A stretch of DNA of 64,000 nt from Umbilicaria muhlenbergii (Eukaryota > Ascomycota > Lecanoromycetes > Umbilicariales > Umbilicariaceae), in the NCBI GenBank assembly GCA_000611775.1, contig KK106981.1:2541211-2605210 (forward strand). The letters run 5' to 3'. Under the pieces are notes generated by a model. It was not told where the DNA came from, ran no database searches, and was given only the letters and a program-made list of their open reading frames with translations. The position numbers and the translations under genes were made by a program. This document shows, one piece after another, positions 2,533 through 62,506 of the stretch; the first letter of the stretch is position 1; every line of letters starts with the position of its first letter.

Positions 2533-2965
2533 TGTTACACCTCTCACTAGACGGTACCTGGTTGGTACGCGTAGCAGGCGTACATGTGATATCACTCATG
2601 ATGTTCAGAGCATGAGCACCTTGAGCACCTGACTGCTCATGATGTTTAAAGCATGAGCACCTTGAGCACCTGATCACTCATGATGCTCAGGGCATGAGCA
2701 CCCTGAGCAGTAAGATTACACATGTAGAACAGTACAATCACACATGAGTCTTTTAAAGTATTATATAATCACAGGTAGATTCATAGTTAGGAGCTCATGC
2801 TCAACTCATGTATTAAATGCAATCTCATAAGTTTACTGCCTTCTAGCCTATTCAAGTCTACATGTAATCAGTAGTTCATTGAACCAAGCGCCGTGGTTAG
2901 ATGAACATTGATATAATTCATTAAATGATTGTATTATCCCCGTCACTATGACATCACCTGTTACA
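2533..2965 (+). repeat. 5' LTR of element A
   Basis: 433 bp from TGTTACA to TGTTACA, the same length as the copy at 8700. The first half holds three imperfect repeats of about 40 bp built from the words GAGCACCTTGAGCACCTG and CTCATGATG. The second half (from about 2763) is shared with the D LTRs. Confidence 0.92.
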
Positions 2966-5900
2966 CTTTGAGCATCATCATCAGAATATCAGTTATGAAA
3001 TGAACTGTGACTCAAGAGTCCCTCAGAAGAATGACAGCCTTCAGTCATGACCTGTCAGTTGTTGAGAGCCTGACATCATCAGGGACAAAGATCAAGATCT
3101 CATCATCAGATAAGTTCTTAAAGGAATGTAGAATGTTGAGTTCATTCCTCACTCAGCTTGATACTTACATTCACCTCAATCATATTATGTTCAAGAAGGA
3201 GTCTGACAAAGTATTATATGCATTCTTCTACTTAAGGTCTGATGCTCTCAATTGATTTGAGCTGACCCTCTGAGATTATATGAAAAACAAGAAGAAGGAT
3301 CATGATGATGAAATGAATGAAATCTTCTTCAGTTTAAAGGAGTTCAAGAAGCAGATAAGAATCATGTTTAAGACTGTTGATCAAGAAAGAATCATGAAGT
3401 GAGAAATCTGCAATATTGTGCAGAAAGAAGCTGTCATGATGTATGCAGTCAATTTTCAAAGACATGTCACATATATGAATTGAGACAACACTGCCTTGAC
3501 TGCGCAGTATTATAAGGGCTTGAAGGACTTCATCAAAGATGAAATCTCTTAATCAGAGTGATCAAGCACCTTAGTCAAAATGATTGAAAAGTCAGTCATT
3601 ATCAACAACCGCGTGTATGAAAGATTTATGAAAAAAAGCCAAAAGAATTATGTACTGCCAAAGGTGAATAAGCCTCATGAAAGCACTCAGTATAACAATC
3701 AACTCTATTACAGCCCTCAGCTGATGAAAATTGATGTGACTTTCTGAAGGAATTGATTTCAGAGGGGAATCAAGCAATTGTCAAAGGATACAAAAGTTAA
3801 AGGGAATTGTTATAGCTGTGGGAAGTCAGGACATTTCACATGCAATTATTGAGTCTCAACAAAAGCCTTTTCATCAAAGAAGAAGAAGACTTATGCTGCT
3901 GTGTTAAAAAAGTCAGCACTGAAGCAATCAGTTCAGCACAACATTATGTCTTAAACAGCTTGTTACAATGACAGCTGTACAGTTCATCAGAGTGACAAAG
4001 ACAGCTCTGAATGATTTTCATGTCAACTGAAGAAGACAAAGGAGTATGCTGCAACCTTTTACAGGAACTTCATCATAGATGTAGAGAAACATCAAGTCAG
4101 GTGAAAGCAGTTCAACTTAAAAGATAATTATGTTAACAGTGATGATATGATACCCTCATTTAGTGAGGAAGAAGACTTCATGAAAGTAGCATCCTCTGAA
4201 GATTCAGGAGAACTTATGAAGAAGAACAACAATAAGTGATTAACTACTCATGAAGAAAGGTGAATTCAAACATACACTGAAATACTCAACACTCTCAGCA
4301 AGAAAGAGGAGTACATGAAGTGAATAAAAAAGATAAAAAATCAGATCCTTTACATTATCTGAGATGCATTTATGCAGAGTTAAAACTGTGAAGAGATCAA
4401 TTATCAAGATATAATCAAGAAGACACCCCTGAAAGGTTCTCAGTTCATCATCAGAGGAAGATATGTTACCCTTAATGAAGCACACATCTCACGGGAACTT
4501 CATATGAAAGTATGAGAACTCTGAAGTGAATACTTTAAGAGAGATCTGAGCAAACATTCATCTCAGAGAGTGAATTCAGAAGACTTTGAGTATGTAGAGA
4601 AGAACTTAAGTTTCTTCTCTTTTAATTCAAAAAACTAGAAGGCCCTTCAGGTCAGAGGTCTCTGAAGATGTTTACTTCAAAGCCTTCAAGCAGTGAATGA
4701 CAACAAGAGTTCATCACTGCAGCACAGGAAGACATGAGCAATTTTCATGTTTAAATTAAAGTCAACAGTCAGTCAGCATGACTGTTAATAGACAGCAGCT
4801 GCACAGGGAACTTCATGAACCTGAAATTTGCTGTGAAACACACAATCTGAACACAGGTGAAGCAGAATCCCTTTAAACTTCAAGGGTTCAATGAGACCTT
4901 TATGAAACATAATAATGAGTGAGTAAATTGAGAGACGGTTCCTACACTTATGCATTTAGGTCAACATTGAGAAAAGATTCAATTCAACATAATGAAGCAA
5001 TCAGGGAGTGATATAGTCCTGAGAATATCATGACTCTGAGTGGTCAATTCAATGATTGATTGAGCTGAAAATGAGATATACTTTGTTAAGAGTGATAATT
5101 TAAATAAATTATATTCAGTCCTGAACTCACCTGAAGGTGTGAAGATCTTCACTATGTCAACAGAAGAAACACATGAGGAATTGAAGAATCTTAATGCAAA
5201 GATACTGTGAAGCAGGTGAGTTGAAGATGATTAAAACTCTGTTATCAAGCTATCTATTCCTAAAGAATATAAAGACTTCAAGGAATTGTTTACAGCTGTA
5301 AAAGATCAGGACGTCTTGCTGAAACATTAAGAATGAGATCATGAAATCAAGATCATGAAAGGTTGCACATCAACAAAGTAACTTATTTACTCATTGTCAC
5401 CTCAGAAGTTAAACACTTTATGAGAATACCTAGAGGAGAACTTATGAAAAGGATTCATATGAGAATCTTAATCTTCAGCTGAATATTCAATACTGTTCAT
5501 GCCAAAATCTGATGGTTCACTTTGATTGTGCGTTGACTATCAAGCATTGAACAACATTATCATTAAGAACAGTTACCCTTTGTCACTCATTTTGAAACTG
5601 CAGGATCAGTTTCAGAGGGTACAATGATTCATCAAGTTCAATATTTCAGGAGCCTTCAACCAGATTCATATTAAAGAAGGAGATGAATGAAAAACTGTGT
5701 TCTGAATAAGATCTGAACTCTATGAGTACCTGGTAATGCCTTTTAAATTAATGAACGCGTCAGCAACTTTTCAGGCTTTTATCAATAATGTACTGTGAGA
5801 GTACTTGAATCAGTTCATGATCATCTACCTCAATGACATACTGATCTACTTCAAGATGAAGGAGCAGCATGTTCAGCATGTTCAAAAAGTCCTGCAAGCA

Positions 5901-8166
5901 CTTCAAGATGCAGGATTACAGGTAAAGCCTGAGAAAAGTCTTTTTCATTTCAAGGAAGTACACTTCCTAGGCTTCATAATAACATCAGAAGGGTTACAGA
6001 TGAACTTAAAGAAAATATGATCTGTGATTGAATAATTAATATCAAAGAACATCAAGGAAGTGCAGTTCTTCCTTGAGTTCATGAACTTCTATAAGAAGTT
6101 TATCAAAAAGTATTCAAAAATCACATCACCTCTAACAGAGTTGATCAAGAAGAATCAGAAATTCAAGTGATCACTTGAAGCACAAAAAGCCTTTGATGAG
6201 TTGAAGAAGAGATTCACTTCTCAATCAATTCTCATGAGTTTTGACCCTGAGAAACTTATTACGCTCAAGACAGACGCGTCAGATAAAGCTATAAAAGCAT
6301 GCATTAATCAATCAAATGATAAGAGACGTCTACAGTCAGTAGCTTTCTATTCAAGAAAGTTTTCAAGCGCTGAAATGAGTTATGAGATACATGACAAGAA
6401 GCTGTTAACAATTGTCAATGCATTTAAATAATGACGTGTGTATCTGAAAGGATCTAAACATGAGGTTCAGGTATATTCAGATCATAAGAATCTGTTATAT
6501 TTCATGACAACAAAAGTCTTAAATAGAAGACAGGTACGTTGATCAGAAGAATTATCACAGTACAATTTCAAAATTCATTATCAAAAGGATTCAAAGAACA
6601 TCAAAGTGAACATTCTCAGTTAATGAGCTGATTACTTACAAGATAAGTCAGTCATCAGTCATGTTATCCTTCAGGAAGATGAGCAAGAAAACATGTCTTT
6701 CAATAAACAGTTCAACCTCATCATACAGGTAGAGGACAACATTTTTAAAAATGAGATTCAAAAAGTATTGAAGAATGACAAGCTAGCACAGCAGGTTCTT
6801 CAGAATATTAAAGATCATGAAAGCTTCAAAAAGAAGAAAGACTTACTACTTTTTCAAGGCTTGATCTATGTTCCTATTAGCCTTCAATAAAAGCTAATAG
6901 AGGAAAGTCATTTCAACAGGACACATGATCACCAAGGAATTAATAAAATGATAAAACAACTCACAAGAACATATTACTTCTCACACATGAGAAAGAAGGT
7001 CAAAGAGATCATTTAAAAGTATGACATCTGCTGAAGAAGCAAAGCAGATCAACATAAATCATACAGTTTACTTAAATCATCAAAGACATCATCAAGATCA
7101 TGAGCAAGCATCACATTAAACTTTGTAGTTAAGCTATCAAGATCAAAAGAACCTCTGATGAAAACAGTCTACAATTCAATATTAATTATCACTGACAGAC
7201 TCATGAAGTATGAATACTTCATATCTTATAATGAAGCATCATCAGCAGAGGAACTTGCATATATGTTTTTAAGAATCATAACAGTCAATCATGAGCTGCT
7301 GAAAGAGATAATCTCTGATAAAGATAAACTCTTTACCTTCAAGTTCTGAAAATCATTAGTGGATCAGTTGAGAATACATCACAAGTTATCAACATCATAT
7401 CATCCTCAGATGAATGAGCAAACAGAACAGTTAAATTAAACTATGAAATAATATTTATGATGTTATGTTAATTATCAGCAGACTAATTGAGTGAAACTCT
7501 TGCTGATAACTCAGTTAGCATATAATTCAGCAACAACAGAGACAACTGAAGTATCATCATTCTACATCAATTACAGTTTCAACCCGGCTATGAATGAGGT
7601 CAGGGGACTAATAATGATAGCACAGAGAGCAAAAGTACAAGTGAATCACCTCAAGAATCTGCACAAAATGTTGCAGAGGAACATCAAATTCACCTCAGAA
7701 AGATCAGCAGTATATTATAATAAAAAGAGAGCTAAAGGACCTACTCTCAAAGAGGAGGATAAAATATATCTTTTATGTCACAATATCAAGACAAAGTGAC
7801 CTAACAACAAATTAAACCACATGAAGTTGAGACCTTTTCAAATTGCAAAAACTAAGGAAAGTGTCAACTATGAGCTTGAGCTCTCACCCACTATGTAAAT
7901 ACACTCAGTATTTCATGTATCACTACTTGAACCAGCAGATCTGAAAACATCAATATAAGAAAAATCATCAGAGATCAACCTGAAGAGTCAAGATGCTGAA
8001 TTTGAGGTAGAAGAAATTCTAGATCAGCAAGACATAAATGATAAGTCACACTACTTGATCAAATGAAAAGGATATGACAGTGAAGGAAACACATGAGAGT
8101 CAGAGGAAAATCTCACTCATTATGTGATGAAACTGCAACAGTTCCATCAAAGAAACCTGCAAGAAG

Positions 8167-8570
8167 TCAATTCACATCACTGAGACTGAAAGCTTCAGGT
8201 GCAAGAAAGTTGAGTGAAGGCTCAGTAGAAAAGTCAGCAGCTACAGCAGTCATGCACTCATTTATCTTCAACTCTTCAATGTTTTGAAGTTCAGTACAGA
8301 TCAAGTCTGACTGTTTCTTTCTCAGAAAAGTAATTTGTTTGTGAAGCCTTTTCTTCTTCACTTTTATTTTTCACTTTTGTGTCATGACAGCATTCTTTTC
8401 CTTTTTTAAATGATGAATCTTCATGCTCACCTTGTTGATCTCCTCTGAAGATATGAACAAGTCACAAGAGATGCTCAGTCAAACACAGGTGTCACACTTA
8501 TTGTAATCATTCAACATCTTGCACTCCTTGTCATCAGTTAAGCAGTGACTACACAATTGCATGACAATTC
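8167..8570 (-). pseudogene. Antisense accessory frame of element A: six-Cys cluster plus helical segment
   Basis: The frame lies on the strand opposite to gag-pol, between chromodomain and 3' LTR. The cluster at 8464-8553 has cysteines spaced 2-6-8-2-6, the spacing of the fungal Zn(II)2Cys6 binuclear cluster; CSHC and KCDTC are visible. About 100 bp on, in the same frame, 8167-8361 encodes a charged, leucine-rich segment beginning near KKKRLHKQITFLRKK, likely helical or a coiled coil. The element D copy at 61690-62025 repeats both parts, and a lone copy of the helical part lies at 9600-9785. The likely role is a DNA- or protein-binding accessory protein; function is unknown. This copy is broken. 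Confidence 0.6.
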
Positions 8571-8699
8571 ATTCATTCTCAGTGATTGAATCAGTCAGAT
8601 GAGAATGATGAGAAGTAGACAACTTCTTCTTTCTGATACTGAATGAAGACATGAGGAAGGTTGAGTTTTCAAGGATGAAAATGTTGAGAGGAGAGTTAA

Positions 8700-9132
8700 T
8701 GTTACATCTCTTGTTAAATGATACCTGATTGATACGTGTAGCAGGTGTACATGTGATATCACTCATGATGTTTAAAGCATGAGCACCTTGAGCACCTGAT
8801 CACTCATGATGCTCAGAGCATGAGCACCTTGAGCACCTGACTGCTCATGATGCTCAGAGCATGAGCACCCTGAGCAGTAAGATTACACACATAAAACAGT
8901 ACAGTCACACATGAGTCTTCTAGAGTACTATATAATCACAGGTAAATTCATAGTTAGGAGCTCATGCTCAACTCATGTATTGAATGTAATCTCATAGGTC
9001 TACTGCCTTCTAGCTTATTTAAATCTACATGTGATCAGTAGTTCATTGAACCAAGTGCCGTGGTTAGATGAACATTGATATAGTTCATTGAATGATTATA
9101 TTATCCCTGTCACTACGACACCACCTGTTACA
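8700..9132 (+). repeat. 3' LTR of element A
   Basis: 433 bp and aligned without gaps to 2533-2965. It is followed directly by the second CTTAA target copy. An open stretch on the opposite strand begins inside this LTR at 8766 and runs into the antisense frame of the element. Confidence 0.92.
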
Positions 9133-55006: not shown

Positions 55007-55354
55007 TGTTATGACTTAGCCAGGACAGTACTTGAAAGTATGCACTTACAGTGAACAGTTGATATCAATCAAAGTGATCAAGATGAGTGAGAGCTCAAAC
55101 ACCTTGATCACTTCAATCAGGGTGATTGAGCTGTTTGAAGTGATTAAGAGTTCAATCATTATGATCACCTCAATCATATGAGTCTCCTATAGTCTATATA
55201 ATCACAGGTAGATTCATAGTTAGAAGCTCATGCTCAACTCATGTATTAAAGGCAATTTACTAGTTTTATCTTCTAAGTTCTATTCTTTCATCATGATATC
55301 AATAGTTCAGTGAACAACAGTATTACTTCAGTCACTATGACATCATCTGTTACA
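55007..55354 (+). repeat. 5' LTR of the second D copy
   Basis: 348 bp from TGTTATGAC to TCTGTTACA. U3 has repeated TGATCA/CAATCA dyad words. Confidence 0.92.
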
Positions 55355-58300
55355 CTTTGAGCATCAACTTACAGGGTATCAGTCATGCAATGAACTGACT
55401 CACTGATCTCATGACGTTCAAATCCTCTGATAAGAAAGAATCAGTCATTAAACATCTCTCTGACAAAGTAATCTGAGTTAAGATCTTATTACCAGATAAG
55501 TTTCTTGATGAGAGAAGGTTATTAAACCTGTTCTTCACTCAACTTAACACATACTTATGATTCAACAAGTCTTTATTTATGTTTAAATCAGAGAAAGTGC
55601 TGTTTACCTTCTCATTCTTGAGGTCAGATGCTTTGAACTGATTTAAACTTATTCTTCAAGATTACCTTGACAATAAAAGTGAAGATCAGGATAACCTGAC
55701 TAATGAAATCTTTCACAATCTAAAGAAGTTCAAGAAACAGATAAGAACAATGTATAAGACAGTTGATGAAAAGAGAATGATGAAACAAGAAATTTGCAAC
55801 ATTCAGCAGAAAAAAGCAGCTGCTATGTACACAATAAACTTTCAGAGACTCACCTCACATATGAATTAAGATGATATTGCTTTGACGGCGCAATATTATA
55901 AGGGATTAAAGGACGTGATGAAAGATGAAATCTTTAAAGCTGAACACTCTGTCATACTCTCAGAAATGATTGAATGATCAATCATCATCAACAACTGAGC
56001 TTATGAATGAAGCTTAAAAAAGAGTCACAAGATTCTCATATCATAAAGAGCTGAAAAGAACTGTGAGTGCCAGTACAATAATCAACTTTATTATGAACCT
56101 CAACTTATGAAGATCAACACAGCCACTCAGATGAATCAATTTCAGTGAAGAAAAAGCTCAGAGAAGAACTCAGAGAAGAAAGGAAAGCCTCATGAAAACA
56201 ATTATTATAATTATGAAAAATCAGGACATTTTGCCTGAGATTGTTGAATCTCTGAAAAGATCATTCAATCAAAGAAGACATACATCACCACATGAGAAGT
56301 GAAGGACAAGAATAATCATAACATTATGTCTTAAACAGCATGTTATGATGATGACTGTCACACACATCAGAGTGATAAAGACGGCTCTGAATGATTTTCA
56401 TGTCAATTAAAAAGAATAAGAGAATATGTCACTACCTTTCATCTAAACCAAGCCGCAGACTTGAAGAAATAACAAGTTTAATGAGATCAGTTCAGTCAAG
56501 AAGGCAATTATGTTAACAGTAATGAAATGATGTTCTCATTTAGTGAAGAGGAAGACTTCATGAAAGTAACAGACTCTGAAGATTCAGAGAAGCTCATCAA
56601 AAAGGATGATGACATTTAAGCATTCACTCATGAAGAACAGTGATTGAAAACTTATGAAGAAGTATTTAAAATGATGAAAGAATCTTCTGAGAATTATGAA
56701 AATCACATAAATTAATTGCAGGAGTGAATCCTTTGAATGATTAAAAACACATTCACTCAGAAAGGTGAAATCAAGGATATGAATTATCAGAATATACTCA
56801 GAGAAACATCATTAAAAGGTTCAAAATTCATCATGAAAGGAGAGTATGTTACCCTTGATGAAGCACACATCTCAAGGAAACTACATATGAAAGTTTAAGA
56901 ACTCTGAAGTGAATACTTGAAGTTAAACTCAATATGATACTCAGACAAGAAAGTTGACTCAAAGGACTTCAAGTATGTGAAAGAGAATCTGAGATTCCTC
57001 TCATTTAATTCAAAAAACTAGAAGGCCCTTCAGGTCAGAGGTCTCTGAAGATGCCTGAACTAAAGCCTCTGAAAGAGGTGATTGCTAAAGAAATCACTGT
57101 CACAGAAGACATGAGCAACTTCTGTGTTTAAGTTAAAGTGAAAGATCACTCAGTCAGACTGTTAATTAACAGCAGCTGCACAGGGAATTTCTTAAATTCA
57201 TGATTTACAAAATTGAACAGGATAGAAATTCAAAGAAAGCAGAATTCTTACTTGCTTCAAGAGTTTAATGAAACCCTTATGAAACACAATAATGATTATG
57301 TGAATGAAGAAATCATTCTGATACCTGTTCAGATAAGTCAACACTGAGAGAAAATCAGTTTCAACATTACAGAGCAGTCAGGAAGTGATATAGTTTTAAG
57401 CATATCTTGACTCTGAACAGTCAATCTCATGATTGATTGAGCTGAGAATGAGATATACTTTATGAAAGGCAGTACTTTTATGAAGTTATATTCAATCCTA
57501 CACTCACCTGAAGGAGTGAAAGTCTTCATTATGACAACAAAAGAAACACGTGAGGAATTAAAGAATCTCAATGCAAAGATACTGTGAATTAAGTGAGTCA
57601 ATGATGACTGAGACCTTATTATCAAGTTATTTATCTTTAAAGAATACAAAGACTTTGAAGAATTATTTACAGCAGTTAAGGAACAGGACGCCTTACTGAA
57701 ACATTAAGAATGAGATCATGAAATCAAGATCATGAAAGGTTGCAAACTGACAAAGTAACTCATATACTCATTGTCACCTCAGAAGTTAAATGCATTGTGA
57801 GAATATTTAAAAAAAAACTTATGAAAAGGATTCATTTAAGAATCTCAGTCTTCAGCTGAATATCTGATACTGTTTGTCCCAAAATCTGACAGATCATTAA
57901 GGTTGTGTGTCAACTACAAAACATTAAACAACATAATGATAAAAAACAGTTATTCACTGCCACTTATGTCAGAACTGCAGGACAGATTTCAGAGAACATA
58001 ATGATTCATGAAGTTCAACATTTCAGGAGCATTCAACCAGATATGAATAAAAGAAGATGATGAATGAAAAACAGTGTTTCAAATATGCTCAGGGCTATAT
58101 AAGTACTTAATAATGTCATTTGAATTAATCAACGCCCCTGCAACTTTTCAGGCTTTCATCAACAATATTTTGTGACAATATTTAAATCAGTTCATGGTCA
58201 TCTACCTTGATGACATACTAATATACTTGAAAATGAAAGAACAGCATGTCAAACATGTTTAAAAAGTTCTTTAAGCATTGAAGGATGCTGACCTGTGAGT

Positions 58301-59638
58301 TAAGCCTGAGAAAAGTCTTTTTCATGCCAAGGAAGTTCAGTTCCTTGAGTTTATTGTTACATCAAAAGACTTATGAATGAACCTGAAAAAAATTAATTTC
58401 ATGGTTGAATAATCAGTTTCAATGAGCATTAAGGAAGTACAATCCTTCCTAGGCTTTGCAAACTTCTATAGAAAGTTTATCAAGAAATATTTTAAAATCA
58501 CAGCACCTCTAACAGAGTTGATAAAGAAAAACTGAAAGTTCATTTGATCTACTGAAGCACAGAAATCCTTTGAAGAGCTAAAGAAGCACTTCACATCACA
58601 ACTGATTCTCATGAGTTTCAACCCTGAGAAACTTATTACGCTCAAGACAGACGCGTCAGACGGAGCTATAAAAGCATGCATTAATCAGTCAGATGATAAG
58701 AGACGTCTGTGATCAGTGACTTACTACTCATGAAAACTGTTAAGCGCTGAACAGAGTTATGAGATACACAACAAGAAGCTGTTAACTATTGTTGATGCAT
58801 TCAAACAATGACATGTATATCTCAAAGGACCAAAACATGAGGTTTAAGTTTATTCAGATCATAAGAATCTGCTGTACTTCATGACAACAGAAGTCCTGAA
58901 CTGAAGGCAAGTTCATTGATCAGAAGAATTATCACAGTATAATTTTAAAATTCACTATTGAAAAGGATTGAAGAATGTTAAAGCAGATGCTCTCAGCAGA
59001 TAAGCTGATTATCTGCAGAAAAAGTCAATTGTAAATTAAGTTATCCTCTGAAAGGATGAGCAAGAGAGCACAACATATAACAGAGAAGTTAACTTCATGA
59101 TAAAAGTTAAAAATAACACTTTCAAAAGTCAAGTTTGAAAGGTGTTGAAGAATGACAAGTTAACACAACAAGTCCTTCAGAATATCAATGATCATGAAAG
59201 CTTTAAAAAGCAAGAAGGTCTCTTACTTTTTCAAGGCTTAATCTATGTGCCAGTCAGCCTATGAGAGACACTGATAGAAGAATGTCATTTCAGCAAGATG
59301 AATGAGCATCAAGAAGTTAAAAAAACAATGAAACAACTCACATGAATGTATTACTTCCCACGGTTAAGGAAGAAGGTTGAAGAAATCATTTAAAAATGTG
59401 ATACCTGCTGAAAAAATAAAGCAGAGCACCACAAATCATATGAATTACTGAAATCATCATTAACATCATCACAATCATGATTAAGCATCACATTAGATTT
59501 CATGATAAAACTGTCAAAATCAAAGAAACCCCTGATGAAAGTATTATACAACACAATACTTGTCATAACAGATTAACTCATGAAGTATGAATACTTCCTA
59601 TCATATAAGAAGTCATCATCAGCAGAAGAACTACATCA

Positions 59639-60729
59639 GCAATTTAACAAGTTAACTCTGAGCTTGTTTTTAGCACTTTGAGCGCTCTGAGCTTCTGATC
59701 TCATGTCTCAGCTAACAGCCGCTCTTAGCATCCTCTGAGTGCTTTGAGCTCAACCTTAAATCTTGAGCAGAACATCAAAATTTTGTGATAAAAAAATAAT
59801 TATTAAAACAATTGTTTAAACAAGTACACACACAATGTTATAATAACAGTAAAACTTATAATAAGTAAACTTTTGCTAAAATTCACTTTTCTGCAATAAA
59901 AAATCATGATTTGTTGAGTCTGAAAGCACTGTATAAGTGTTGAGTTCTGAATATTTAAAGAACTTCAAGATTTTCAGCACTTAAAAATTTACACACTTTA
60001 ATAACTTTTGCAACTCAACAGATATGAAGAAACTTTCAATGCATAAATTATAAAAAACAGTATTCTCTATTAATCTTAAATTAAAACTTTCTTCATAACT
60101 GCTGTTGTTGTTAAGTTATATTTAATTCAAGTTTTCAACAGCGAAAAATCTTTCAAAAAAAGTCACATACTTTGAATAACTATTCCGCTTTTATACTTAT
60201 GATATAACTTTCAATTTATAAGTTGTAGAGAATAAGCTGTTTAAGAGTTTTCTTATACAAACTTTCTTTTTATGTGTTGTTGTTGTTGAGTTATTCAAAA
60301 AGTCATCAAAAGTCTGTTTATTAATGTTGTGATGTTCATCACTGAAAGTTTGAAATCAATATAACTTTTTAACAACAACAGTTATAAAAAAACTTTAAGT
60401 TATAGAACTGTTTAATAGCTTCTTCTCTACAACTTATAAACTGAAAGTTATATTATAAGTATAAAAGCGCAATAGTTATTCAATATGCTAATATATTTAT
60501 AATTCATAACTATTGCAAATTAAAACTTATGAAGAAATCTTTAGTTTGTAAAGTGTACAGAATAAAGAGATCTAAAACTTTTCAATAAAAAGTTTTTTAT
60601 TATTCATGAAGGTATAATAGTTATTTAAAGTGTAAAATTTGTATGAGCTCATTTACTGCTCAGAGAGTGCTCTGAGCGCATAAAGTACTATTAACTAAAA
60701 CCTTATTTTTGAGCAGGCTGCCAAGTTGC
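59639..60729. mobile_element. Non-autonomous foldback-type DNA element inside the D integrase
   Basis: A 1,091-bp insertion with no coding capacity. The ends form an imperfect inverted repeat of about 20 bp (GCAAYTTRRCA type). Inside them are TGAGC-rich words, then a very long internal foldback. 60175-60250 is the near-exact reverse complement of 60405-60485, with AACTTTCAATTTATAAGTTG on the left arm, and outer modules at 59970-60130 and 60500-60650 also pair. Repeated modules such as AAAACTTTCTTCATAACTG recur. No target duplication could be fixed. It resembles foldback or hAT/MULE-derived MITE elements and is the youngest layer in this part of the nest. Confidence 0.75.
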
Positions 60730-61689
60730 GGATGTAATGTACACATTCTTAAAAATTATAACAGCAAACCACGGGTTACTGAAAGAAATAATCTCAGATA
60801 AGGATAAACTCTTCATCTTCAAGTTCTGAAAGTCATTAGTAGATCAGTTAGGAGTTCATCACAAGTTATTCATCACATATCATCCTCAGATGAACGGACA
60901 GACTGAATGACTAAATCAAACATTAAAATAGTACTTACACTGCTATATCAACTATCAACAAATCAATTGAGTAAAACTCTTGCTGATAGCTCAGTTAACC
61001 TACAACATGACAACAACAGAATCAACAGGAGTGTCACTGTTTTACATTAATTATGAGTTTAACTCACCTACAAATAAACTGAGAGGGTTGATAACAATAG
61101 CATAAAAAGTAAAAGTATGAGTGAATCATCTAAAGGACCTTCATCAGGAACTTCAACAAGACATAAAGTTTACCTCAGAAAAATCAACAATATATCATAA
61201 TAAGAAAAGAGATAAAGGATCTACTCTTGAAAAGAAGAATAAAATATACCTTCTGCATCACAACATCAAGACAAAGTGATCAAGCAACAAATTAAATCAC
61301 AAGAAGCTGAAACCTTTTCACATTTTAAAGAAGAAAGGAAGTGTTAACTATGAACTTAAACTTTCATCAGCTATGTGAATACATTCAGTATTTCACATAT
61401 CTCTACTCAAATCAGCTGATCTGAAAACATCATTATAAGACAACTCACCTGAGATTGACCCTGAGAGTCAAGATGCTGAGTTCAAAGTAAAGAAAATTCT
61501 AGATCAGCAAGAGATAAATGATGAGTCTCATTATTTAATCAAATGAAAAGGTTATGACACGGCAGAGAACACATGAGAATCAACAGAGAACCTCATTCAT
61601 TATTCAGTGAAGTTACATCAGTTTCATCAGAGGAACCTGCTGTCAATCAGTCATCAAGAACAATGAAGAGTTTGAAGAAATTAAAAAAA

Positions 61690-62025
61690 GAATTAATAAT
61701 TTAACTCTGAGTCAACTCCTCCTGCTTCAGTTCTTTGATGTTTTAAAGCTCAATATAAATCAAATTCATCTGTCACTTCTCAAGGAGAGTAATTTGTTTA
61801 TGAAGCCTCTCTTTCTTCACCTTCAACTCTCACTTTTTAGCAGAAATGTCTGCTTTTTTCTTTTATAAATGAAGGAGTTCCTTTCTGACGTGATTCAGCT
61901 CAGCTGAAGAAATTACAAGGTCACAAGCAACACCTGACTGAACATAAGAATTACAGCAGTCAGATTCTGAAAACACAAAACACTCATGATCACTGAAAAC
62001 ACAGTGATGACAAGGTCACATAACA
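61690..62025 (-). pseudogene. Antisense accessory frame of element D: Cys cluster plus helical segment
   Basis: It lies in the same place and orientation as the antisense frame of element A. The Cys cluster is at about 61920-62015 (the CHHC start is visible) with the same spacing as in A. The helical part at about 61700-61870 contains KKERLHKQITLLEK, against KKKRLHKQITFLRKK in A. The shared words between two separate insertions, on the strand opposite to pol, argue for former coding function. This copy is broken. Confidence 0.55.
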
Positions 62026-62158
62026 AGATTTCTGTAGTTGATGATACAGTCAGTCAGGTGAAAGTGATGAATTAAGAATTAAACAATCTTTCTGTCACTG
62101 AAGTAAGACATGAGGGGCTTTTGATTTCTGAGGATGAAAACCTTGTGAGAGGATCTAA

Positions 62159-62506
62159 TGTTATGACTTAATCAAGACAGTACTTGAAAGTATGCACTTG
62201 CAGTGAACAGTTGATATCAATCAAAGTGATCAAGGTGAGTGAGGGCTTGAACACTTCAATTACCTCAATCAGGGTAATCAAGCTGTTTGAAGTGATTGAG
62301 GATTCAATCATTATGATCACCTCAATCATATGAGTCTCCTATAGTCTATATAATCACAGGTAGATTCATAGTTAGAAGCTCATGCTCAACTCATATATTA
62401 AAGGCAATCTATTAATTCTATCTTCTAAGTTCTATTCTTTCATCATGATATCAATAGTTCAGTGAATGACAGTATTACTTCAGTCATTATGACATTACCT
62501 GTTACA
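62159..62506 (+). repeat. 3' LTR of the second D copy
   Basis: 348 bp and aligned without gaps to 55007-55354. Followed by GAAGG. Confidence 0.92.

What the first reader, a model, noticed from the sequence alone, without database searches (positions are those of the whole stretch)
8167..8766. Antisense Zn-cluster gene carried by chromovirus families A and D
Between chromodomain and 3' LTR, on the strand opposite to gag-pol, element A encodes a six-Cys cluster with spacing 2-6-8-2-6, as in Zn(II)2Cys6 proteins, followed by a charged helical segment. The D copy at 61690-62025 has the same arrangement and near-identical words (KKERLHKQITLLEK against KKKRLHKQITFLRKK). An open stretch on the same strand starts inside the 3' LTR at 8766, which suggests the LTR could drive transcription both ways. 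Antisense accessory genes are known in some plant Ty3/gypsy elements, but I do not know a described Zn-cluster one in fungal chromoviruses.
Basis: partly seen in the sequence, partly recalled or inferred. Interest (0 to 1): 0.82.

Follow-up and report, generated by a model that had tools for sequence, protein, structure and literature searches.

The report
Antisense zinc-cluster gene in fungal retrotransposons
Many copies of a group of jumping genes in this fungal genome carry, on the strand opposite to their main genes, a small gene for a protein that looks like the DNA-binding part of yeast GAL4, probably a regulator made by the element itself.

Summary
Element A (2533-9132, TSD CTTAA) and element D (55007-62506, TSD GAAGG) are decayed Ty3/gypsy chromoviruses. 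Both carry a frame antisense to pol between chromodomain and 3' LTR: A 8652-8113, D 62111-61593. Coding-type conservation is clear from the second ATG (8562 in A, 62021 in D) to the stop; codons 1-30 and the LTR part show none beyond other frames. It encodes C-x2-C-x6-C-x8-C-x2-C-x6-C plus a long coiled coil. Of the 150 chromodomain matches listed for one query, 147 have a match to it downstream on the opposite strand. Two undecayed copies (E, F) have no stops; dN/dS among E, F and a third, partly rearranged copy (K) is 0.19-0.30. Seventeen of 19 weak Foldseek hits of the AlphaFold model are GAL4-class domains. The Pfam Zn_clus cut-off is not reached and the usual CGG-contact lysines are missing. 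So it is a real, formerly selected antisense gene for a Zn(II)2Cys6-like, probably dimeric, DNA-binding protein; control of its own LTR is the likeliest role, but inferred. Antisense genes at this position are known, including brtn in the fungal element Boty: a new variant of a known kind.

The parts
2533..9132 (+). Element A: decayed Ty3/gypsy chromovirus, LTRs 2533-2965 and 8700-9132, TSD CTTAA
   Evidence: LTR alignment and flanks; RT_RNaseH domains in 6171-6428; Pfam Chromo over its cut-off at G000:C1:2549211-2549363 = window 8001-8153 (39.4 bits)
8113..8652 (-). Antisense zinc-cluster plus coiled-coil frame of A (first ATG 8652, stop 8113-8115), pseudogene in this copy
8113..8562 (-). Part of that frame with clear coding-type conservation, from the second in-frame ATG (149 codons plus stop)
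   Evidence: mean z 4.13, other frames at most 1.55; same ATG used as first in undecayed E and F
8464..8553 (-). Six-cysteine cluster CX2CX6CX8CX2CX6C of A
   Evidence: 1 exact match in window, 0 in 100 shuffles
8113..8183 (.). Overlap of the antisense frame with the 3' end of pol
   Evidence: my reading of the sequence; 107-nt overlap in L063
55007..62506 (+). Element D: decayed chromovirus, LTRs 55007-55354 and 62159-62506, TSD GAAGG
   Evidence: Pfam Chromo over its cut-off at G000:C1:2602691-2602843 = window 61481-61633 (35.1 bits)
61593..62111 (-). Antisense zinc-cluster plus coiled-coil frame of D (first ATG 62111, second 62021, stop 61593-61595), pseudogene, Cys5 lost

Best explanation
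It is an element-encoded accessory gene, transcribed antisense to gag-pol from in or near the 3' LTR. It makes a protein of about 142-153 aa from the second ATG (up to 172-179 aa if the first ATG of D and A is used), with an N-terminal Zn(II)2Cys6-like cluster and a helix of about 80 residues. The protein most likely dimerises through the helix, enters the nucleus, and binds DNA in the element's own LTR to adjust sense transcription, in the manner of a GAL4-type factor or, by analogy, of HTLV's antisense factor HBZ (recalled). Shown: the gene, its position and its conservation as protein. Predicted: the fold. Inferred: antisense transcript, dimerisation, zinc and DNA binding, LTR as target. 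My estimates: real protein gene about 0.95; Zn2Cys6-type fold about 0.9; DNA-binding regulator of the element about 0.5.
For: A/D protein conservation is specific to this frame: mean z 4.4 from the first ATG to the stop (4.7 before the pol overlap, 4.1 from the second ATG); means of the five other frames at most 2.2; 60 random pairs of copies. Three majority A/D indels inside the frame, all multiples of three: 12, 6, 3. Undecayed E and F: no stops over 142 and 153 codons; K open over 145 codons from the second ATG; dN/dS 0.063/0.333 (E-F), 0.243/0.847 (K-E), 0.313/1.051 (K-F). 147 of 150 listed chromodomain matches have a match to the gene, some partial, downstream on the opposite strand. AlphaFold: two short helices at the cluster, then helix 39-120; 17 of 19 PDB matches are Zn2Cys6 DNA-binding domains (Pho7 and 1cld classed so from memory). 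The two undecayed U3 regions repeat CCTCGATC 3 and 4 times, counting both strands; shuffles whose commonest 8-mer reaches this: 5 and 1 of 300.
Against: Pfam Zn_clus stays below its cut-off (14.0 and 12.9 against 21 bits; 10.4), and none of these copies is among the 72 rows of the genome-wide Zn_clus search. The lysines that in GAL4 contact CGG (recalled) are replaced (VTGGRE, LTDDKE). No Foldseek hit is significant alone (best E 0.11); the cluster part of the model has pLDDT 62-73, pTM is 0.38, and the alignment had 2 rows. In D the stop count does not single out the frame: 8 columns with stops in at least 80% of copies against 7-22 in other frames, and one is a stop in all 30 copies. Codons 1-30 show no frame-specific conservation (z 1.1; sense frames up to 1.5). 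RY-coded codon positions are not significant (p = 0.25). In the U3 test, 7-mers are unusual only in one LTR (65 and 0 of 300) and 10-mers in neither (63 and 75 of 300). No expression or binding data.
Confidence: 0.55

Rival explanations
1. The protein is nuclear and element-encoded but acts in the replication cycle (nuclear entry of the cDNA complex, or help to the chromodomain in choosing or marking target chromatin), not as a transcription factor.
For: It accompanies the chromodomain in 147 of 150 listed matches. A review suggests such roles for plant antisense ORFs (PMC7264820, passages). The usual CGG-contact lysines are absent.
Against: 17 of 19 Foldseek hits are DNA-binding domains of transcription factors; the other two are weak and unrelated.
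Confidence: 0.22
2. It is an anti-silencing factor that binds repeats in its own non-coding DNA and counters host silencing, as VANC proteins of plant VANDAL transposons do (recalled).
For: The host mutates these elements heavily (ts/tv 22 and 17). U3 regions hold repeated 8-mers.
Against: No significant similarity to any known protein was found in the libraries searched; no data on methylation.
Confidence: 0.13
3. A host Zn2Cys6 factor was captured once in antisense orientation and is only a passenger.
For: The genome has 60 Zn_clus rows over the cut-off on their own (63 with neighbours, of 72).
Against: Purifying selection and spread over several families with about 30-55% protein identity.
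Confidence: 0.05
4. Only the antisense RNA matters, or the frame is a by-product of sense-strand or PPT constraint.
For: Between first ATG and LTR the conserved stretch includes the PPT (sequence). One sense frame that shares third positions has a similarly low ratio (dN 0.066, dS 0.304).
Against: That sense frame has a stop at 3 of 141 codon pairs, the antisense frame at 0 of 142; no sense frame exceeds mean z 2.2 between A and D.
Confidence: 0.05

Closest known systems
brtn, antisense gene of the Boty retrotransposon (Botrytis cinerea; Zhao et al. 2011, Virology 417:248; paper not held, nothing of it seen)
   Same: Antisense gene between pol and 3' LTR of a fungal element whose gag-pol ends in a CHROMO domain (passages of PMC4227169, PMC7264820, PMC8365987); a BRTN-like transcript is reported in Monilinia (PMC5987419, passage)
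   Different: BRTN's sequence could not be compared. Whether it has a zinc cluster is unknown here; the passages read mention none.
Plant antisense aORFs (Grande gene23, RIRE2, Retand ORF4, PvRetro13 ORF2)
   Different: Per that review no clear similarity to other proteins, apart from a transposase_28 and an SMC domain; no Zn2Cys6 cluster mentioned
Fungal Zn(II)2Cys6 factors (GAL4, PUT3, LEU3, PPR1)
   Same: Cys spacing, predicted fold, long helix after the cluster
   Different: Below the Pfam cut-off, no basic CGG-contact residues, encoded by a retroelement, no large regulatory domain
HTLV HBZ (recalled; the HTLV antisense promoter in the 3' LTR is mentioned in PMC7264820)
   Same: Antisense, near the 3' LTR, coiled-coil DNA-binding regulator: likeness of arrangement only
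   Different: bZIP, not zinc cluster; animal retrovirus; no homology claimed

Membership tests
Zn(II)2Cys6 (PF00172) | CX2CX6CX5-12CX2CX6-8C spacing (recalled) | tested here: met
   all six Cys in 26 of 30 A copies, 7 of 30 D copies, and in undecayed E and F
Zn(II)2Cys6 (PF00172) | Pfam gathering score 21 bits | tested here: not met
   14.0 (E), 12.9 (F) bits; 10.4 (A copy)
Zn(II)2Cys6 (PF00172) | Binuclear cluster fold | tested here: inconclusive
   17 of 19 Foldseek PDB hits are Zn2Cys6 domains but none has E <= 0.001; model pLDDT 62-73 there
Zn(II)2Cys6 (PF00172) | Basic residues between Cys2 and Cys3 that contact CGG (recalled) | tested here: not met
   VTGGRE (E), VSGGRE (F), LTDDKE (A), VFSDHE (D)
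Zn(II)2Cys6 (PF00172) | Binds zinc and DNA | not testable with these tools
   needs purified protein
[quoted passage not shown]
   147 of the 150 chromodomain matches listed
Antisense additional ORF between pol and 3' LTR (aORF-3R, including brtn) | Homology to BRTN protein | not testable with these tools
   sequence not held; paper not held
Ty3/gypsy chromovirus | LTRs with TSD, RT-RNaseH, chromodomain at the end of pol | tested here: met
   Chromo over the cut-off in A and D; 62.0 bits in L063
Ty3/gypsy chromovirus | Integrase before the chromodomain | tested here: inconclusive
   no Pfam match at E <= 0.01 in the four other open pieces of A's sense strand

The most novel reading that the evidence does not exclude
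A broad lineage of fungal chromoviruses encodes its own GAL4-like zinc-cluster dimer on the antisense strand, which reads U3 repeats and sets sense transcription: a fungal counterpart of HTLV's HBZ built from a fungal transcription-factor fold.
Probability: 0.35. Interest if true: 0.8.

Novelty: new variant of a known kind. Interest (0 to 1): 0.6.

Why it matters
Antisense genes in LTR retrotransposons have been noted for years, but the review read here (passages, PMC7264820) says that their functions are unknown. A recognisable DNA-binding fold, kept by selection across several families and with undecayed copies to hand, gives a concrete prediction (the protein binds its own LTR) that can be tested in vitro or in laboratory yeast. 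It also warns that small zinc-cluster proteins annotated in fungal genomes may be transposon genes.

Tried and rejected
Start inside the LTR: rejected (frame not kept between LTR and first ATG in 12 of 30 D copies; no coding signal beyond a sense frame). Which of the two ATGs is used: not settled; codons 1-30 show no frame-specific signal, but the stretch is short. Sense-strand explanation: rejected, sense frames carry stops. Codon-position test on RY-coded A/D differences: not significant, p = 0.25. Relatives in IMG/VR and GTDB contigs: none by tblastn; these are viral and prokaryote collections, and I had no fungal protein or genome collection to search. NCBIfam and PDB sequence searches: nothing significant (best PDB E 0.054). 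Paper searches for a zinc-cluster antisense gene in fungal retroelements: none seen in the listings, which show only the top papers; brtn was found. Eight Chromo matches without the gene were read: the strict six-Cys pattern was in none, but four are CpG-poor and may have lost Cys. One looks like a host chromatin protein (recalled).

Full report
Setting. The window lies in a 34.8-Mb, 7-contig genome (G000). Sixty Zn-cluster rows over the Pfam cut-off on their own, of 72 rows, say that it is a fungus; the species is not known to me. The window is CpG-poor (observed/expected 0.11). Thirty copies of the A segment differ by 22 transitions per transversion and thirty D copies by 16.7. In A, C/T columns stand before A (160), T (103), C (39) and G (3). 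This is RIP-like decay, so stops in copies are expected.

The elements. A has LTRs at 2533-2965 and 8700-9132 with a CTTAA duplication. D has LTRs at 55007-55354 and 62159-62506 with GAAGG. One pol piece of A matches RT_RNaseH; four other open pieces gave no Pfam match. Pfam Chromo is over its cut-off in both (window 8001-8153 and 61481-61633), and scores 62.0 bits in the better preserved relative L063.

The frame. On the antisense strand it runs from a first ATG at 8652 (A) and 62111 (D) to stops at 8113-8115 and 61593-61595. A second in-frame ATG, present in 12 of 12 rows, is at 8562 and 62021. The frame overlaps the last 71 nt of pol in A (my reading) and 107 nt in L063. Among 30 A copies it has stops in at least 80% of copies at 3 of 233 codon columns, one of them the terminal stop; the other five frames have 5-19. 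Each earlier stop column has sense codons in at least 3 of 30 copies. D is more decayed: 8 columns against 7-22 in its other frames, one a stop in all 30 copies, so for D the stop count proves nothing. From first ATG to stop, 29 of 30 A copies have the same length; so do 26 of 30 D copies over the part fetched.

Selection. Between A and D, majority indels inside the frame are 12, 6 and 3 nt; a 20-nt gap at the end comes from where the D slice was cut, and a 1-nt column at 8411 is gapped in most copies of both. Between LTR and first ATG, 18 D copies have 47 nt and 12 have 46. When the differences are shuffled locally among like bases, the antisense frame conserves protein better than chance: mean z 4.37 from the first ATG, 4.70 before the pol overlap; single pairs 2.8 to 6.7. 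The other five frames reach means of at most 2.16, single pairs up to 3.9. In the LTR/PPT part this frame (1.88) is no better than a sense frame (1.69) (60 random pairs from 30 x 30 copies). Splitting at the second ATG gives 4.13 after it and 1.12 for codons 1-30, where two sense frames reach 1.5. So the coding claim is firm from the second ATG on, and the start codon is open. RY-coded codon positions alone were not significant (p = 0.25). Little-decayed copies give an independent test. E (L061, identical in L062) and F (L063) have no stops over 142 and 153 codons. K (L073) is open over 145 codons from the second ATG but has a stop before it and leaves the alignment near its end. dN/dS is 0.19 (E-F), 0.29 (K-E) and 0.30 (K-F); E-F differences fall 11, 9, 27 on codon positions 1, 2, 3. 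One sense frame has a similar ratio because it shares third positions; it has stops at 3 of 141 codon pairs.

Spread. One A copy finds 151 matches (150 of 186 candidates scored): 71 listed rows at 68-100% identity, the D group at about 38-50%, and further groups. A G-family copy finds 37 near-full-length rows at 67% or more. Four listed rows have no stop: E twice, F, part of K. Of the 150 chromodomain rows listed for F's pol end (447 candidates, 150 scored), 147 have a row for the gene downstream on the opposite strand; partial rows count (coordinates typed). Of the three misses, two have a partial row just outside my limits and one has none listed. One of the 150 has a row on the same strand within 1.2 kb. 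Pfam Chromo finds other loci (147 rows); in eight that I read, the six-Cys pattern was absent.

The protein. C-x2-C-x6-C-x8-C-x2-C-x6-C is followed by a charged helix of variable length and a conserved stretch (KKERLHKQITLLKK...LIHTELQNIEELE in E). AlphaFold on F with E as the only other row gives mean pLDDT 79, pTM 0.38, short helices at 5-9 and 24-29 and helix 39-120. Foldseek lists 19 PDB matches, 17 of them Zn(II)2Cys6 DNA-binding domains (GAL4, PUT3, LEU3, PPR1, HAP1, the A. nidulans ethanol regulon activator, and by memory Pho7 and 1cld), none significant alone (best E 0.11). Pfam Zn_clus stays below its cut-off, and the lysines used for CGG contact in GAL4 (recalled) are not there. I call it Zn(II)2Cys6-like and do not file it in PF00172.

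Mechanism. The parts fit a small dimeric DNA-binding protein made from an antisense transcript. Its nearest plausible target is the element's own U3: the two undecayed LTRs repeat CCTCGATC 3 and 4 times on both strands together (5 and 1 of 300 shuffles reach this). 7-mers are unusual in one of the two, 10-mers in neither, and one CGG-N13-CCG in both may be chance. Transcription, zinc, dimerisation, binding and effect are inferred.

Known precedents. Passages of PMC7264820, PMC8365987, PMC4227169 and PMC5987419 (of PMC8365987 also abstract and one section) cite brtn, an additional antisense gene of Boty in Botrytis (a chromodomain element), and antisense ORFs of plant elements, function unknown. 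The brtn paper is not held. My searches listed no zinc-cluster antisense gene in a fungal retroelement; most subscription papers are outside the library.

Verdict. Observation confirmed with corrected borders; core of the interpretation supported; a new variant of a known kind.

Noticed in passing
L061:2905-3191 and L063:7782-8136: In E and F an LTR lies 70 and 44 nt upstream of the second ATG in the same direction as the zinc-cluster gene, the reverse of A and D; E (two places) and F were the only listed matches spanning the junction (40 of 327 candidates scored). Could be autointegration products or LTR-driven gene copies.
   Followed up: partly
L061:3262-4100: In E the LTR and gene are CpG-rich without stops while the adjoining pol piece has 5 TGA stops and low CpG. 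F's pol end is also CpG-poor though open, so part of this may be base composition.
   Followed up: partly
L073 (G000:C1:6719800-6721400): Copy K reads like A at its N-terminus and like E/F towards its C-terminus, as if recombinant or ancestral.
   Followed up: no
G000:C4:4514030-4517366: Five copies of a G-family zinc-cluster fragment at exactly 742-bp spacing near a contig end.
   Followed up: no
L080-L083: CpG-poor loci with Chromo matches and no six-Cys pattern; L080 and L082 share words, suggesting another decayed repeat family.
   Followed up: partly
window 8760-8878: U3 of the A LTR holds imperfect tandem and inverted repeats of a GAGCACC-like word, possible binding sites.
   Followed up: no
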